DNA of 64,000 nucleotides from Clostridia bacterium (lineage in GTDB: Bacteria > Bacillota > Clostridia > Oscillospirales > Acutalibacteraceae): the NCBI GenBank assembly GCA_017432485.1, contig JAFRJB010000079.1:1-64000 (forward strand), read 5' to 3'. Both the position numbers and the translations under genes were made by a program. Positions 21,115 through 61,808 of this stretch are shown piece by piece; positions within the stretch are counted from its first letter, which is position 1; every line of letters begins with the position of its first letter. Below the pieces are notes generated by a model. It did no database searches, had not been told where the DNA came from, and saw nothing but the letters and a program-made list of their open reading frames with translations.

Positions 21115-22323
21115 ATGGATTACGCAAAAGAATCATTAAGACTCCACGAAGAGTGGAAAGGTAAAATTGAAGTTATCGCGCGCGCAAAGGTTGACTCGAA
21201 GGAAGCTTTGAGCCTTGCTTACACCCCCGGTGTAGCACAGCCTTGCCTGGAAGTGCAAAAGGATATCAACAAATCCTATGACCTTACCCGCCGCTGGAAC
21301 ACCGTTGCCGTTGTAACTGACGGTACTGCTGTTCTCGGTCTCGGTGACATCGGCCCCGAAGCCGGTATGCCCGTTATGGAAGGTAAATGCGTTCTCTTTA
21401 AAGAGTTCGGCGATGTAGATGCTATCCCGCTTTGCATTCGCTCTAAGGATGTTGATGAAATCGTCAGAACCGTTGAACTGCTTGCAGGCTCCTTCGGCGG
21501 CGTGAACCTTGAAGATATCGCGGCTCCCCGCTGCTTCGAAATCGAAAGACAGCTCAAAGAGAAATGCGACATTCCGATTTTCCATGACGACCAGCACGGT
21601 ACTGCCGTTATCTGCGGCGCTGCCATCATCAACGCCATGAGATTAACCGGTAAGAAGTTAGAGGATTGCACCGCTGTTATGAGCGGCGCAGGCGCTGCCG
21701 GCGTAGCAATCTGCAAACTGCTCATCAGCCTTGGTCTGAAAGGCGAAAACGTTATCATGTGCGACAGAAAAGGCATGATTTGCGAAGGTGACCCGAGACT
21801 GGAAGGCAATGCTTCCAAGATTGAAGTTTCCAAGTTCACCAACCGCGCTAAGAGACAGGGCTCTCTTGCCGATGCCATGAAGGGCGCTGACATCTTTATC
21901 GGCGTTTCCGGCCCCGGCATTGTCAGCCAGGATATGGTGCGCTCCATGAACAGAGACCCGATCGTGCTGCCGATGAGTAACCCGACTCCCGAAATTATGC
22001 CCGACCTTGCTAAAGAAGCAGGTGCTGCCATTGTCGGTACCGGTCGTTCGGACTTCCCGAACCAAATCAACAATGTGCTTTGCTTCCCCGGTCTTTTCAG
22101 AGGCGCTTTGGATGCGCGCGCAAGCGACATCACAGAGGGTATGAAGATTGCTGCTGCTTACGCACTGGCTGACTTCATTCCGGCTGATCAGCTGACTGCT
22201 GACCACATCATTCCTTACGCATTTGATGAAGGCGTGAAGGAAGCTGTTTCCAAGGCAGTGTATGAAGCTGCTTTCAAAGATGGCGTTGCAAGAGTTCCCT
22301 ATGATGAGAGCTACAGCAAATAA
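21115..22323 (+). CDS. NAD(P)-dependent malic enzyme (oxaloacetate-decarboxylating type)
   Basis: The 402-residue protein is the short bacterial malic enzyme. It has AYTPGVAQPC, the GLGDIGPEAGMPVMEGK motif, SFGGVNLEDIAAPRCFEIE with metal ligands, FHDDQHGTAV, a Rossmann glycine motif GAGAAGVA and MSNPTPEI. It converts malate to pyruvate, CO2 and NAD(P)H. GGAGG lies nine bases before ATG. A second, broken copy of its 3' end occurs at 26025-26405. With the preceding dehydrogenase it could form a malate-pyruvate shunt. Confidence 0.95.
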   Translation: MDYAKESLRLHEEWKGKIEVIARAKVDSKEALSLAYTPGVAQPCLEVQKDINKSYDLTRRWNTVAVVTDGTAVLGLGDIGPEAGMPVMEGKCVLFKEFGDVDAIPLCIRSKDVDEIVRTVELLAGSFGGVNLEDIAAPRCFEIERQLKEKCDIPIFHDDQHGTAVICGAAIINAMRLTGKKLEDCTAVMSGAGAAGVAICKLLISLGLKGENVIMCDRKGMICEGDPRLEGNASKIEVSKFTNRAKRQGSLADAMKGADIFIGVSGPGIVSQDMVRSMNRDPIVLPMSNPTPEIMPDLAKEAGAAIVGTGRSDFPNQINNVLCFPGLFRGALDARASDITEGMKIAAAYALADFIPADQLTADHIIPYAFDEGVKEAVSKAVYEAAFKDGVARVPYDESYSK

Positions 22324-22347
22324 TCAATACCTGTAATGAACAAAACA

Positions 22348-22380
22348 CAGCCTGCGGAATATTCCGCAGGCTGTTCTGTT
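22348..22380 (+). terminator. Terminator after malic enzyme
   Basis: CAGCCTGCGGAAT and ATTCCGCAGGCTG form a perfect, self-complementary 26-base inverted repeat (22348-22373) followed by TTCTGTT. The U-tract is short, but the stem is strong. Confidence 0.75.
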
Positions 22381-22405
22381 ATCTGTACTCTGTGTTCTGT
22401 AATCT

Positions 22406-22446
22406 GACAAATAAGGATTTGGCGCAGTGCCAAATCCTTATTTGTC
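22406..22446. repeat. 18-bp palindrome spanning the subtilase stop codon
   Basis: GACAAATAAGGATTTGGC and its exact complement flank a five-base GCAGT loop. On the minus strand the last two codons and TAA of the 22438-25512 gene are in one arm. The same CAAATAAGGATTTGGC sequence is the terminal repeat of the element at 34678-35065, which suggests a collapsed copy of that element. Confidence 0.85.
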
Positions 22447-25400
22447 TAACAGTTTCCACGCCGGGCAATAGACACTCTGCAAAACCTGCTCTTTGCCGTA
22501 AACATTTTCGAGCAAAAGCATGGAAATATCTGCAATATCAATCACTGCATTGCCATCAATATCGCTTGTGATATTTACGTCACTTGCCTCCTGCCCCAAC
22601 TGTGCCAGCACCTGACTGACATCGGCAAAGTCTACAATAGTATCTTCATTGACATCTTCACCGCCATAACCGGTTCTTACTTTTCTGATTCCGTTTTCAA
22701 TAGTATAGCCATTATAATACAACAAATTCTCATTGTGCGTGATTTCGCAATAGTAATAGCGGTAATCGTACTTATCGCTCTCTAAAGTGCGGTTAACTTC
22801 TCCCTCCAACTTTGTACCTGTATGGTTATTTCTCAAATTTGTGCCATACCACTGGTAGGTGATATTAATCCCGATGCCGTCTGCTTCCAAGGTGCCACCT
22901 TTAGCACCCATTTCCTCCGGTTGAGAAGCGATGGCAGGCGTATGCAAAAAGTTTATATTGGCAGCAAGAGTTCCAGTTTTCACATCCGAGTTTTCATCAC
23001 TGCAAATAACCAAGTTCTTGTAATTATCGGAGTAACCCTCAAATGTGGTTTTCGTATAACCGCGTTCCTCATACCAATAGCCGTGATAGTCAAAGCCCAA
23101 ACTGGAACTGATTGAGTTAACAGTGCATGTGCGCGATACAATCGCCATCGGCACTTCTCCCGCAACAGGAGCGTATTTCAACCGTTTCAAACGCGGGGCA
23201 TACAAGATTTCGGTCGAAACCGGCAGAGATTCTATCGTATTGAGCATGGGTGCGTTGACAACTCTTATCGCGCGCACATTGTAAAAAGCGCAACGGTTAA
23301 TAGAAGTCACTTTTGAAAAATCGAAATTTTGCAAACTCACACACCCACAAAATGCATATATGCCAATATATATATTATTATCTCCCAAATCATCGCCGTA
23401 TGGTTCCAAATGAATGTTGACGGTTTTTAAGCGCAAGCAACCGCAAAAAGCATCTTCCGGAATTCCGCTTCGGCTCTTCTGCATACACTCCACCGTTTTA
23501 AGATAGCGGCAAAAATAAAATGCACCATTATCAATTCTGGCATGCGGAAAATACGCCTGGCGAATCAATGTTTCGCGAAAGGCATTTTTACCGATTTTTG
23601 TTACCGAAGGCGCTTCTATGATTGCCAGGTTGGTATCAGCAAAGCATTCATCACCAATCTGTTCCAAACCCGGCGCTTTGAAGTACACTAAAGTCTGCGG
23701 CATATGGCATAACACTCTTTTTGCACTGTCCGGCAAAGTGATGGCGTTTAATTGCGCGGTTGGTGCGGTGAAGTCTGCACCAAGACCTGTGACCTGAATG
23801 CCGTTGATTGTTTCGGGAATCACTATCGAACTGTCATTGCCCGTATATTGTGTGATATAACCATCTGCACCGATAGTCAATTCCTCTTGTGAGGCATGGC
23901 GCTGCGCAAAGAATTCGGCAGCAGTCACAATGCTCGGTGATTTTCCGCTTTTGCAGGCAACGGCGCGCAAGCACGCAAAGCCTTGTATCTCCAAGGGTTG
24001 CGCTACCGTGCCACCTTCTTCGGCTTGGGTATACTGCTGCACGGTTTCACTGTTGTAGGGGAAAGAGCCGTCTTCGGTATAGAAAATACGGCTATCCTCC
24101 TCGGCGCTCATTTCCACAAACACTTCTTCGTTCGCCCCGATATCTTGGGTAAACGCAACTTCTCGGCAGCGCTCCATACCGATTGCTACACCCGGCTCGG
24201 GCATTCCATTGCCGTAATACAATGCATTGTCAGGCGGATTCTGAACAAGCCGCGTTATAGCGTGGTAATCCCCGGCGCCTCTGCATAAAAACTCAAACAA
24301 CCGCCCTTCTAACGGGTGAATGGAATCATTCGAATACAGTTGTTCGCCGGTGTAACAAGAATCCTTTAGCGCCTGCTCTATATCAGCCGACCGGTACTGC
24401 GGGTGCACTGCTTTGACTGTCGCCGCCGCAGCCGCTACAAAGGGAGTAGCAAAGGAAGTGCCGGTACAGCCTTCATATTCAATTTCTCTGCCAAATATTT
24501 CTTCTTCATATTCATTTCGCGCAATGGAATAAGTGGTTGTAACGCTGTCGCCCGGTGCGCAAAAATCCACCCCATCGCCAAAGTTGGAATACGATTCGGG
24601 ATTGCCGTTGCGGTCAATCGCAGCCACACAAAGCACCTCATCCTCGCAAGCGGGAGTACATTCTGCCACATTGACACTCTCGTTGCCCGCAGCAACAACC
24701 ACCGTAATATCGGCAGCATAGGCTCTTTGCAGCGCTTCTTTAATACAGGGGTCAGTCTCCCCCGCGCCGCCAAGAGAAAGATTAATCACGCTGTTGCCGT
24801 CTTCTATCGCTTTATCAATACACATCGCAACGGAGATTTCATCCCCTTCACCGTCCATATTCAGCGCTTTGTAAGCGTAGACACTCACACTCTCGGGCGT
24901 ATTGGCATAGATAATTTCGCACACATTGGTGCCGTGACCGAAATCATCATGGGCTGTCCAGCGATAGCCGGTATTCGCAGTGTTATATCCCGTATCGACC
25001 AATCTGCCGCCGCAATTTTGATACAGTTCGCTTTTTGTATCAACGCCCGTATCAATCACTGCCACCTTGAGCGCAGCAGTTTCTATCGATTGCTCTGCAA
25101 TATATTCCATGGTTTCTTTCACACCGACAGAGCGCATACACTCCCCTTTTGCCTCGTGCAATTTATCCCATTGCACCCACTGCACAGCGGGAAGTTCGCT
25201 ATAATACGCCAGCGCCTCTTCTGCTTGCGCATGCGAAGGGTATTGAAAGACATATAAATTGCGGTAGCCTTTGATATACTCTGCATTTCCGTAGCGAGGA
25301 ATATCGGCAGAGGCTTTGAGAATAATCCTCGCCTCTACCATTTCTTCCATTGTCATATCGCTCTCGAGCGCCTGCTCATTGAGTGTTTCCAATTTCTGTG

Positions 25401-25512
25401 CGAAAGCATCGGCAGAATCAGTTTGTGCACCATAGGCGGATAATGGCAAAGAACCGATACCGGCAAGAAGCGCCACTATCACAATCAAACTGCAAATGCG
25501 TTGATATTTCAT
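22438..25512 (-). CDS. Secreted S8 subtilase with CHB_HEX-like, LRR_5 and dockerin modules
   Basis: The 1024-residue protein starts with a signal peptide (IVIVALLAGIGSLPLSAYGA). The S8 domain has Asp154 in AVIDTGVD, His193 in GHGTNV, Asn277 in AAGNES and Ser353 in GTSFATP, so the triad is intact. A segment near residues 470-530 (RIFYTEDGSFPYN...LRAVACKSG) resembles a CHB_HEX_C_1 module. Residues ~545-800 are BspA-like LRR_5 repeats. The C-terminus (~950-1005) is a type I dockerin with two loops, DVNEDTIVDFADVS and DIDGNAVIDIADIS. It is probably a cell-surface or cohesin-bound protease. An unusual leader precedes it. Confidence 0.9.
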   Translation of the reverse strand: MKYQRICSLIVIVALLAGIGSLPLSAYGAQTDSADAFAQKLETLNEQALESDMTMEEMVEARIILKASADIPRYGNAEYIKGYRNLYVFQYPSHAQAEEALAYYSELPAVQWVQWDKLHEAKGECMRSVGVKETMEYIAEQSIETAALKVAVIDTGVDTKSELYQNCGGRLVDTGYNTANTGYRWTAHDDFGHGTNVCEIIYANTPESVSVYAYKALNMDGEGDEISVAMCIDKAIEDGNSVINLSLGGAGETDPCIKEALQRAYAADITVVVAAGNESVNVAECTPACEDEVLCVAAIDRNGNPESYSNFGDGVDFCAPGDSVTTTYSIARNEYEEEIFGREIEYEGCTGTSFATPFVAAAAATVKAVHPQYRSADIEQALKDSCYTGEQLYSNDSIHPLEGRLFEFLCRGAGDYHAITRLVQNPPDNALYYGNGMPEPGVAIGMERCREVAFTQDIGANEEVFVEMSAEEDSRIFYTEDGSFPYNSETVQQYTQAEEGGTVAQPLEIQGFACLRAVACKSGKSPSIVTAAEFFAQRHASQEELTIGADGYITQYTGNDSSIVIPETINGIQVTGLGADFTAPTAQLNAITLPDSAKRVLCHMPQTLVYFKAPGLEQIGDECFADTNLAIIEAPSVTKIGKNAFRETLIRQAYFPHARIDNGAFYFCRYLKTVECMQKSRSGIPEDAFCGCLRLKTVNIHLEPYGDDLGDNNIYIGIYAFCGCVSLQNFDFSKVTSINRCAFYNVRAIRVVNAPMLNTIESLPVSTEILYAPRLKRLKYAPVAGEVPMAIVSRTCTVNSISSSLGFDYHGYWYEERGYTKTTFEGYSDNYKNLVICSDENSDVKTGTLAANINFLHTPAIASQPEEMGAKGGTLEADGIGINITYQWYGTNLRNNHTGTKLEGEVNRTLESDKYDYRYYYCEITHNENLLYYNGYTIENGIRKVRTGYGGEDVNEDTIVDFADVSQVLAQLGQEASDVNITSDIDGNAVIDIADISMLLLENVYGKEQVLQSVYCPAWKLLDK

Positions 25513-25536
25513 TTCCGTTCACCACCTCTGAAAGTT

Positions 25537-25562
25537 AAAAAAGGCGCAGCCGAAGCTGCGCC
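25537..25562 (-). terminator. Terminator-like hairpin in the subtilase leader
   Basis: On the minus strand GGCGCAGC-TTCG-GCTGCGCC is followed by TTTTTT, a textbook intrinsic terminator with a UUCG tetraloop. It ends about 25 bases before the subtilase ATG and no gene lies upstream on that strand for 900 bases. It could therefore be an attenuator for the subtilase, or end a small RNA from the leader. Confidence 0.8.
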
Positions 25563-25585
25563 AAAAAACGCAAACTTCAACTGTC

Positions 25586-25714
25586 GCCAAACAATTTTTC
25601 AAATAACTCCAAACAAAAAGAAGTACCTGAATAAAAGAAGTTGCATTTTTATCAAATGATAAAAATAGGACTTCCTTTTTGTTCGGAATAATTTAATTTG
25701 AAAAATCATTTGGC
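25586..25714. repeat. 129-bp inverted repeat in the subtilase leader
   Basis: GCCAAACAATTTTTCAAAT (25586-25604) pairs with ATTTGAAAAATCATTTGGC (25696-25714) with two mismatches. Inner pairs CAAAAAG.AAGT/ACTTCCTTTTTG and ATTTTTATC/GATAAAAAT (25645-25666) continue the stem, so almost the whole stretch can fold into one long hairpin. The order is long hairpin, terminator-like hairpin, ribosome binding site. It is either a small palindromic element or a leader RNA. Confidence 0.7.
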
Positions 25715-26024
25715 TTCTATTATTATATCATAGTTTTATAAAACATTCAACCGACAAATCTTTAGCCCAACATATCGGCACTGCGCACAATCCGTTATCA
25801 CTTTACATATTTGGATAACTCAAATATAAAGACCTGTCCGGCAGTCCAAAAACAATATAAAAGATAAAGCCGACAAAAAACATCGATTATTTAAAAATAT
25901 ATATTATAATATTTCTCGACAATTGATTATTAAAAATATATCTAATTTTAGTTTATCAATAGCAAGAAACGAAAGCAAGTTTTTCGGAAAACTAATGAAA
26001 AATCAAGAAAAAATAGGGCGCCAC
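25715..26024. other. Gene-free A/T-rich spacer
   Basis: This is low-GC sequence with no open frame of family-like character, no terminator and no promoter that I can support. It separates the subtilase leader from the malic enzyme remnant. Confidence 0.5.
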
Positions 26025-26405
26025 AAGGGCGCTGCCATCTTTATCGCTGTTTCCAAGGCAGTGTATGAAGCTGCACTACGGAGAGTGGCGATAAAGAAAT
26101 TTTGGTTTATTTTGTCTGCTTTCACTCACCTCGACAATTTAAAAATATGCCAATACGCTGAGTATTCCCACATTTTAAAATTGCCTATCTGAGCAAAATC
26201 AGGCAAAATAAACTGCTTCGCACCTTAAATTCAATATTTTTGTGCAAGAAGAAGGCAAAAATCGCACATAAAGCTGACGCTTATGTGCGGTTTTTAACGC
26301 ACTTATTGTGCGAAAAGATTGAATTTAAGGCAATATTTCTTTACCTCCACTCTCCGTTTAGACGGCGTGGCAAGAGTTCCTTATGATGAGAGCTACAGCA
26401 AATAA
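26025..26405 (+). pseudogene. Remnant of a malic enzyme gene, deleted and interrupted
   Basis: 26025-26074 joins a segment like 21888-21908 (KGA.IFI.VS) to one identical over 29 bases with 22243-22271 (VSKAVYEAA). After a 280-base inverted-repeat element, 26361-26405 matches the last 45 bases of malic enzyme (22279-22323) with three differences, all synonymous, and ends in the same codons DGVARVPYDESYSK and TAA. The fusion point lies in a shared GTTTCC. It is a broken second copy of the malic enzyme 3' end on the same strand as the intact gene. Confidence 0.85.
26078..26357. mobile_element. MITE-like element with 23-bp terminal inverted repeats
   Basis: ACGGAGAGTGGCGATAAAGA (from 26078) and its counterpart ending at 26357 match at 20 of 23 positions over the full repeat. 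Inside is a second perfect 13-base inverted repeat, CCTTAAATTCAAT (26223-26235) with ATTGAATTTAAGG (26318-26330), which encloses a hairpin CGCACATAA/TTATGTGCG (26263-26289) followed by GTTTTT. There is no transposase. The element interrupts the malic enzyme remnant. A target duplication was not clear. Confidence 0.78.
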
Positions 26406-26423
26406 GCTTACTTTGTAAAAATG

Positions 26424-26483: not shown

Positions 26484-27152
26484 TTACTTAAACGAGACCG
26501 GGTCGGTTTTGCCGGCATCAAAATCGCTGCCCTCGGGTGAAGGTTCGGACATACTGAAATACATCTTTGCCGCTTTGGTGGTGCCGAAATCGCGGTTGGA
26601 ACCGGTCTTTTGCACCTTGTTAAAGGCTTCTCTAAAGAGTTTATTATGCGCTTCTTCTCGGTTGAGCAGGAAATCAATCGTTTCTCTGACCTTCTTATCT
26701 TCTATTTGTCGATAGAGGTATTCATAAACCACTTTGGCTCTTTGCTCGGAAGCAATATTTGAGAGCAAATCTGCGCACAAATCGCCTGTCACAGAAACAT
26801 AATCCCCTGTCCAAGAGTAGCCGGAAGCATTGATAAGCCCCGGATTCAAGCCCAAAATCACGTGGCTTTGCACTTCACCCGCATCGACCTTTGCCGCATC
26901 CACATCGTGCCCGTTAAGCAGGTTAATGGTCTGCGCCACCATTTCCATATGCCCCAATTCCTCAGCGGCAATATCAAGAAATAAATCCTTAATCTCCGGG
27001 TCTTTAATGCGAAAGCTCTGCGCCATATACTGCATGGCAGCCTTAAGTTCTCCGTTTGCTCCACCCAGTTGCTCGTGCAGCAGCGCAGCGTACTGCGGGT
27101 TCGGTTTTTCCACCGCTACCGGGTGAAAGAGCTGCTTTTCGTGTTTGAACAT
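26484..27152 (-). CDS. Manganese catalase family protein (CotJC-like)
   Basis: The 222-residue protein reads MFKHEKQLFHPVAVEKPNPQYAALLHEQLGGANGELKAAMQYMAQS, with the ferritin-like di-manganese ligands in GELKAAMQY, AAEELGHMEM and SEQRAK...NREEAHN. It would break down hydrogen peroxide without haem. It is shorter than lactobacillus Mn-catalase (266) and longer than Bacillus CotJC (about 190), so a spore-coat role is possible. AAAGGAGAG precedes the ATG. Confidence 0.9.
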   Translation of the reverse strand: MFKHEKQLFHPVAVEKPNPQYAALLHEQLGGANGELKAAMQYMAQSFRIKDPEIKDLFLDIAAEELGHMEMVAQTINLLNGHDVDAAKVDAGEVQSHVILGLNPGLINASGYSWTGDYVSVTGDLCADLLSNIASEQRAKVVYEYLYRQIEDKKVRETIDFLLNREEAHNKLFREAFNKVQKTGSNRDFGTTKAAKMYFSMSEPSPEGSDFDAGKTDPVSFK

Positions 27153-61184: not shown

Positions 61185-61808
61185 TTAATACGGATTGGTC
61201 CAACCATCGTTGAAATAGGAAGAAGTGAAAGCACTTTGACCATAATTCTTAGTAGCCAAAATCACGGAAATGTCGCCTAAGCAAACTTCCTTGTTGTGGT
61301 CTACATCGGAATTGATGTTTGTGCTTGTCACAGTTTCGCCGATGTTCATCAGAGCTGCTGCAACATCCTGCACATCGATGACACCGCTTTGGTCGACATC
61401 GCCGCCGAATACAACATTCTCGCAAATCTCAACATCTTCATTTTCAGCTACATCAATGCTGGTGACATTGTTCTCAGTCCAACCCGGAATAGAAATGCGC
61501 AAATCATATGTGCCTTCCGAGAGTTTATCAAACAAATAAGAACCATCCGCAGCAATGTTGACAACCTTCACGGGGTGACCACCCTGTAATAAAGTTGCCT
61601 TGCCGTCGTTGTTAAAACTAAAACTGACGTTTACCTTACCGGAAATGGTAGCACCTTCAGCGTTCTTAGCCGAATTCTCGGCAGAGGCGGTATTTGAGAC
61701 GGGCTCAGCCTTAAGAACATCCTCAGCGCCAGCATTCATGGCAAGGGCTGCCGTTCCGACCGGAACGAGCATCATAATTGCTAAAATAATACACAGAAAC
61801 TTTTTCAT
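61185..61808 (-). CDS. Small secreted dockerin protein
   Basis: The 207-residue protein has a signal peptide (FLCIILAIMMLVPVGTAALA), a carboxypeptidase-regulatory-like beta domain (residues ~53-125: GKVNVSFSFNNDGKATLLQGGHPVKVVNI...GTYDLRISIPGWT) and a C-terminal type I dockerin with two loops, GDVDQSGVIDVQDVAAAL and SDVDHNKEVCLGDISVIL. No enzyme domain is present. No ribosome binding site lies before the ATG; the promoter sits so close that the mRNA may be leaderless. Confidence 0.85.
   Translation of the reverse strand: MKKFLCIILAIMMLVPVGTAALAMNAGAEDVLKAEPVSNTASAENSAKNAEGATISGKVNVSFSFNNDGKATLLQGGHPVKVVNIAADGSYLFDKLSEGTYDLRISIPGWTENNVTSIDVAENEDVEICENVVFGGDVDQSGVIDVQDVAAALMNIGETVTSTNINSDVDHNKEVCLGDISVILATKNYGQSAFTSSYFNDGWTNPY

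What the first reader, a model, noticed from the sequence alone, without database searches (positions are those of the whole stretch)
22324..26405. Accessory segment flanked by duplicated malic enzyme 3' ends
The intact malic enzyme ends at 22323. A second copy of its last codons lies at 26025-26405 on the same strand: 29 identical bases (22243-22271 and 26046-26074) and a 45-base block with three differences, all synonymous. The only full gene between is the dockerin subtilase on the opposite strand. Integrative elements that use a gene end as attachment site leave exactly this pattern. The synonymous-only changes suggest that the copy came from a functional allele and did not decay in place.
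Basis: partly seen in the sequence, partly recalled or inferred. Interest (0 to 1): 0.72.

Follow-up and report, generated by a model that had tools for sequence, protein, structure and literature searches.

The report
Captured protease gene with RNA leader
A secreted-protease gene was inserted between two neighbouring genes of a gut Clostridia bacterium, duplicating the end of one neighbour by ordinary recombination, and the protease gene carries a strongly conserved on/off-type RNA leader that is widespread in this bacterial class and has no match in the Rfam RNA catalogue.

Summary
The malic enzyme 3' duplication is real, but it is not an integrase footprint. Two congeners (G002, G004) have malic enzyme directly followed by Mn-catalase, with no subtilase and no second malic enzyme end. 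So the 3.7 kb segment is a lineage-specific insertion. The second copy is a decayed fragment: it retains pieces spanning 444 bp of the gene, has lost about 342 bp internally, and is split by a 280 bp inverted-repeat (MITE-like) element found in all seven genus genomes. No recombinase lies in the segment, and the duplicated stretch is far longer than a typical att core. Homologous recombination with close-relative DNA fits best; donor and recombination type are inferred.

Following the segment led to something more interesting inside the same coordinates. The subtilase is preceded by a promoter, a pseudoknotted leader RNA and an intrinsic terminator. The same RNA occurs in 49 of 150 family genomes and 86 of 391 class genomes, but only in the window's own genome in a 299-genome phylum sample. 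It has strong covariation, sits about 40 nt before diverse, mostly secreted or surface-protein genes, and has no Rfam 15 match. Ligand and function are untested.

The parts
21115..22323 (+). intact malic enzyme gene (left copy of the duplicated 3' end: 21880-22323)
   Evidence: ORF; Pfam malic and Malic_M
22406..22446 (.). 41 bp perfect hairpin repeat, multi-copy in the genus, overlapping the subtilase 3' end
   Evidence: inverted repeat 18+18 nt, 100%; many matches in own and congener genomes
22438..25512 (-). secreted subtilase with BspA-type leucine-rich repeats; C-terminus only weakly dockerin/EF-hand-like
   Evidence: Pfam Peptidase_S8 7.7e-36, LRR_5, CHB_HEX_C_1; subtilisins in PDB; no Pfam dockerin; weak C-terminal PDB similarity E 0.08-0.8
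25537..25562 (-). intrinsic terminator of the leader (GGCGCAGC TTCG GCTGCGCC + T run) just before the ribosome-binding site
   Evidence: sequence; fold
25557..25716 (-). conserved pseudoknotted leader RNA: P1 25696-25714/25586-25604; P2 25675-25694/25601-25620; P3 25645-25666; pseudoknot 25637-25644 with 25570-25578
   Evidence: covariance model match 114.4 bits; pair counts; strand-swap tests; no Rfam match
25722..25750 (-). promoter TTGAAT-N17-TATAAT of the leader and subtilase
   Evidence: sequence; same position relative to the RNA in nearly all relatives
26025..26074 (+). malic enzyme remnant, left part: 21880-21901 (1 mismatch) fused to 22243-22271 by a deletion of about 342 bp
26078..26357 (.). 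280 bp MITE-like element with terminal inverted repeats, inserted in the remnant
26360..26405 (+). malic enzyme remnant, last 46 bp including the stop codon, followed by the ancestral terminator
   Evidence: 43/46 identical; downstream context shared with G002 and G004
26484..27152 (-). Mn-catalase gene, directly behind malic enzyme in G002 and G004
   Evidence: Pfam Mn_catalase 2.3e-55; synteny

Best explanation
An ancestor had malic enzyme, then its terminator, then catalase. DNA from a close relative, carrying the malic enzyme 3' part followed by a subtilase gene with its own promoter, leader RNA and terminator, recombined into the malic enzyme gene. The event was either a single crossover of a circular molecule, or homologous exchange on one side and illegitimate joining on the other. 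This left an intact malic enzyme in front and a 5'-truncated copy behind. The redundant copy then decayed by a deletion of about 342 bp and by insertion of a genus-wide MITE-like element. The subtilase is probably switched by transcription attenuation: if P1 of the leader forms, the terminator folds and the gene is off; if P1 is open, its 3' strand can pair with the terminator's 3' arm and the gene is read. Shown: the empty site, the remnant anatomy, the element insertion, and the leader's conservation, covariation and position. Inferred: the donor, the recombination type, and the switching logic.
For: Empty site in G002 and G004, with the remnant side carrying the ancestral context. Remnant pieces colinear with 444 bp of the gene. 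The inserted 280 bp element is dispersed in all seven genus genomes. Both gene ends share bases not seen in six congeners (22315 A with 22316 G), and three of four differences are synonymous, so the two ends are the same or a very close lineage. No recombinase in the segment. Leader: covariance model hits, pair counts, P1/P2 and pseudoknot swap tests, P1 strand complementary to the terminator arm, fixed distance to the start codon, and absence outside the class in the phylum sample.
Against: No genome with malic enzyme followed by this subtilase was found, so a donor is hypothetical. The compared remnant is only about 97 bp with four differences, too few to date or place the event. A two-step history (small tandem duplication, then insertion at its junction) is not excluded. 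The genome is a 140-contig draft, probably metagenome-assembled, and reads were not available. Ligand, read-through control and expression of the leader are untested; swap tests do not correct for shared ancestry.
Confidence: 0.6

Rival explanations
1. Site-specific integrative element using the malic enzyme 3' end as attachment site; the integrase was lost or acts from elsewhere.
For: Gene-end duplication on the same strand with the host context behind the distal copy; two tyrosine recombinase genes elsewhere in the genome.
Against: Remnant pieces span 444 bp of gene, not a short core. No recombinase or other mobility gene in the segment. No other copy of the gene end in the genome. No such insertion behind malic enzyme in congeners.
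Confidence: 0.07
2. Two-step history: a small tandem duplication of the malic enzyme 3' end, then insertion of the subtilase cassette at the new junction.
For: Both gene ends look like the same lineage. Gives the same final layout.
Against: The DNA after the intact gene carries a different terminator from the ancestral one kept behind the remnant, so no trace of a duplicated terminator.
Confidence: 0.25
3. Assembly chimera: strain variants or repeats joined wrongly in a draft genome.
For: Many genus contigs end in the 280 bp element; 140 contigs; no reads at hand.
Against: Malic enzyme pieces lie on both sides of the element in register, and the pieces carry their own substitutions and a deletion. 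Contamination estimate 0.29%.
Confidence: 0.06
4. For the leader: it is an independent small RNA gene (or RNA repeat) rather than a cis-acting switch of the gene behind it.
For: Tandem units occur (four in G169:C60, two in several loci); where inspected each unit has its own promoter and terminator. Some copies have no sense gene close behind.
Against: 42 of 54 identified downstream start codons lie 33-57 nt after the RNA match, with the terminator directly before the ribosome-binding site. The P1 3' strand is complementary to the terminator's 3' arm.
Confidence: 0.2

Closest known systems
Merodiploidy by recombination with imported DNA: Campbell-type single crossover, or homology-facilitated illegitimate recombination (PMC3240628, PMC3784515; abstracts seen)
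   Same: Intact gene, new DNA, then a truncated copy of the gene followed by its original neighbour
   Different: Donor not identified; the truncated copy has since lost about 342 bp and taken up a MITE-like element
Integrative elements that use gene 3' ends as att sites
   Same: Direct repeat of a gene end around accessory DNA
   Different: No recombinase inside; repeat spans 444 bp of gene; one cargo gene only
MITEs (short non-autonomous inverted-repeat elements of bacteria)
   Same: 280 bp, terminal inverted repeats, no ORF reported, dispersed copies, strong hairpin fold
   Different: No transposase linked here; target duplication not consistent
Transcription-terminating riboswitches and attenuator leaders (for example the fluoride riboswitch with pseudoknot and terminator, PMC11077080, abstract seen)
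   Same: Conserved folded domain with pseudoknot, then intrinsic terminator, then start codon
   Different: No Rfam 15 match; ligand unknown; precedes heterogeneous, mostly surface or accessory genes; often in tandem with separate promoters

Membership tests
Site-specific integrative element | Recombinase gene inside the element | tested here: not met
   Only the subtilase is a full gene between the repeats; recombinases found in the genome lie on other contigs
Site-specific integrative element | Short direct repeats (att cores) at both junctions | tested here: not met
   Repeat pieces span 444 bp of the gene, with internal deletion and insertion
Site-specific integrative element | Empty site in relatives | tested here: met
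   G002 and G004; also expected under homologous recombination
Recombination-derived merodiploid insertion | Long homologous duplication flanking foreign DNA, host context kept behind the distal copy | tested here: met
Recombination-derived merodiploid insertion | Donor with malic enzyme next to the subtilase | tested here: inconclusive
   None among congeners, family genomes or 80 named loci; sampling is thin
MITE | Terminal inverted repeats and several dispersed copies | tested here: met
MITE | Target-site duplication of fixed length | tested here: inconclusive
   TA at one or both ends in many copies, not in all
MITE | Autonomous partner with the same ends | not tested
   No search for a longer element with these ends was made
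Riboswitch or attenuator leader | Conserved secondary structure with covariation | tested here: met
Riboswitch or attenuator leader | Position before genes with an expression platform | tested here: met
   Start codon distance; terminator and complementary P1 strand
Riboswitch | Specific ligand that changes gene expression | not testable with these tools
   Needs in vitro transcription or probing
Known Rfam 15 family (leader) | Match to a covariance model | tested here: not met
   No leader match among hits listed for the window and 24 loci
Cellulosomal dockerin protein (subtilase) | Dockerin type I domain | tested here: inconclusive
   No Pfam match on the full protein or C-terminus; weak PDB similarity to a dockerin and EF-hands, E 0.08-0.8

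The most novel reading that the evidence does not exclude
It controls surface proteins, secreted hydrolases and other accessory genes, often in tandem units with separate promoters.
Probability: 0.5. Interest if true: 0.8.

Novelty: new variant of a known kind. Interest (0 to 1): 0.55.

Why it matters
The duplication shows how an accessory secreted-protease gene can be added next to a housekeeping gene without an integrase, and it corrects an att-site reading. The leader matters more. It is a strongly supported structured RNA with an apparent expression platform, present in up to nine copies per genome, without a match in Rfam 15, and placed before genes for surface and secreted proteins. If it senses a metabolite or second messenger, that would open the control of surface proteins in many gut Clostridia to direct testing.

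Tried and rejected
Composite transposon: the MITE-like element lies on one side only and the hairpin repeat on the left is unrelated. Tandem full malic enzyme genes in the ancestor: none seen in congeners or in 80 named loci. Known RNA family for the leader: Rfam evalue-mode hits over the window leader were chance-level, and on leader loci were tRNAs, Gut-1 or chance hits elsewhere. Literature: searches with riboswitch, dockerin, Ruminococcus, BspA and similar terms gave nothing on this motif. The main text of the human-microbiome RNA survey PMC8040213 does not mention Ruminococcus or Oscillospira; its supplement could not be read. The first pseudoknot swap test gave an invalid number because sequences were trimmed and was redone.

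Full report
Observation. The malic enzyme at 21115-22323 is intact. A second set of its 3' sequences lies at 26025-26405 on the same strand. It is not a single copy. 26025-26046 matches 21880-21901 with one change (non-synonymous, Asp to Ala). 26046-26074 is identical to 22243-22271. 26360-26405 matches 22278-22323 with three synonymous changes. The pieces are colinear with 444 bp of the gene. The first two are fused by a deletion of about 342 bp between short similar stretches (GGCGTTTCC and GCTGTTTCC). The last two are separated by a 280 bp element (26078-26357), and 6 bp of gene are missing there. The first 22-mer occurs nowhere else in the window, and no shuffle contained it.

The element. 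26078-26357 has near-perfect ends (ACGGAGAGTGG... / ...CCACTCTCCGT) and folds into a branched hairpin, z -8.4 for 26060-26420. It has seven near-full copies in the genome and matches in all seven genus genomes, often at contig ends. Many copies are flanked by TA on one or both sides, others are not. The intact malic enzyme serves as the empty site, so this is an insertion into the remnant. I call it MITE-like; a transposase was not searched for.

Empty site and direction. In G002 and G004 the malic enzyme is followed directly by a terminator and the Mn-catalase, with no subtilase and no second gene end. In G005 the malic enzyme is followed by the homologue of the 27404-28741 gene. In G001 and G006 it is followed by a different neighbourhood. 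The window's remnant side aligns with the G002/G004 junction, whereas the DNA behind the intact gene does not.

Mechanism. The segment has one full gene and no recombinase, and the malic enzyme end occurs nowhere else in the genome. Two tyrosine recombinase genes lie on other contigs. An att core of hundreds of bases would be unusual. Both copies share bases not seen together in six congeners (22315 A with 22316 G), so both derive from the same or a very close lineage. Four differences in about 97 compared bases, three synonymous, fit a close-relative donor allele, but four sites cannot decide. Single-crossover integration or homology-facilitated illegitimate recombination (PMC3240628; merodiploids in PMC3784515; abstracts only) produces this layout in one step. 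No donor was found.

The gene inside. The subtilase carries a Peptidase_S8 domain, BspA-type leucine-rich repeats and Fn3-like domains, and resembles subtilisin Carlsberg. Pfam does not report a dockerin, even on the C-terminus alone. PDB similarities there are weak, so dockerin is only a possibility. The nearest homologue is in G006 (54% identity) on a short separate contig without malic enzyme sequence.

The leader. A DNA search showed that the stretch just upstream of the subtilase recurs many times, in the genus and in other genera. Read on the minus strand it is: promoter TTGAAT-N17-TATAAT, a long P1 (GCCAAA.../...TTTGGC), P2, a conserved P3 hairpin (ATTTTTATC...GATAAAAAT), a loop strand (GCAnGCTC type) that pairs with a strand just after P1 (GAGCnnTGC type), a terminator hairpin, ribosome-binding site and ATG. 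The window copy folds with z -9.2. A covariance model from 22 copies matches 49 of 150 family genomes at E up to 1e-3 and 86 of 391 class genomes at E up to 1e-4. In a 299-genome phylum sample it matches only the window's own genome, which serves as a specificity control.

Covariation. On 66 distinct sequences, 93% of pair cells are standard pairs against 81% in shuffles and at most 53% in slid structures; 144 cells have changes on both sides against 37.8. In P1, CG becomes GC in 21 sequences and AU becomes CG in 16. That alignment was fitted to the model, which favours the structure. The following tests were made on sequence segments instead. Energies of own versus swapped strands: P1 extension -6.8 against -2.9 (sd 0.25), P2 -19.8 against -8.6 (sd 0.42), in 57 sequences (the pseudoknot value printed there was invalid and was redone); pseudoknot -11.05 against -9.18 (sd 0.22) in 60 sequences. 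The P1 3' strand (TTTGGCGACAG, or GTCGCAGC in the other subtype) is complementary to the terminator's 3' arm, -8.8 against -7.72 (sd 0.19) in 76 sequences. This is the expected layout of an attenuator in which P1 formation permits termination. Shared ancestry is not corrected for in these swap tests.

Genes behind the leader. Of 54 leader copies with an identifiable downstream gene, 42 have its start codon 33-57 nt after the RNA match. In 40 such proteins, 11 have BspA-type repeats; others have CHAP, bacterial Ig-like, lectin, SLH, M23 and a dockerin domain. Further targets include an EcoRI-type methylase, a PIN7 protein and a SLOG (YpsA) protein. Tandem units occur, four in G169:C60. No Rfam 15 family matched the leader. 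Novelty is relative to Rfam 15 and to the papers searched, not to every published candidate list.

Verdict. The finding as stated is a real but ordinary recombination scar with a decayed gene end. The att-site reading is not supported. The segment's leader RNA is the part that deserves follow-up.

Noticed in passing
window 25537-25750 (minus strand); loci L079-L106, L247-L296: Conserved pseudoknotted leader RNA with its own promoter and terminator before mostly secreted or surface-protein genes; no Rfam 15 match; widespread in the class.
   Followed up: yes
window 26078-26357; L002-L007, L052-L071: 280 bp MITE-like element with terminal inverted repeats, dispersed in all seven genus genomes and often at contig ends; more diverged partial relatives share only the inner part.
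   Followed up: partly
L247, L093 (also the leader copies in L090, L096): Several leader copies have a different sequence from the terminator loop onwards, with a serine-recombinase-like gene in convergent orientation behind it in L247 and L093: possibly an integrative element that uses the leader's terminator as its target.
   Followed up: no
L046 1872-3407 and L041 4989-6223: Behind malic enzyme in G006 and G001 a gene for a MarR-like regulator is flanked on both sides by 16-17 palindromes (TAGTTTAGCACTAAACTA or TAGTTAAGTGCTTAACTA types), many spaced about 44-50 bp; shuffles gave about 1-2. Looks like an operator array whose sequence differs between species. The MarR assignment is by eye.
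   Followed up: partly
window 22406-22446: 41 bp hairpin repeat (GACAAATAAGGATTTGGC...GCCAAATCCTTATTTGTC), multi-copy in the genus, at the subtilase 3' end.
   Followed up: no
L265 665-1613: Four tandem leader units about 265 bp apart in front of a PIN7-domain gene.
   Followed up: partly
window 61200-61409 (minus strand): A 208-aa open frame matches the dockerin-like C-terminus of the subtilase (31% identity, E 5e-7).
   Followed up: no
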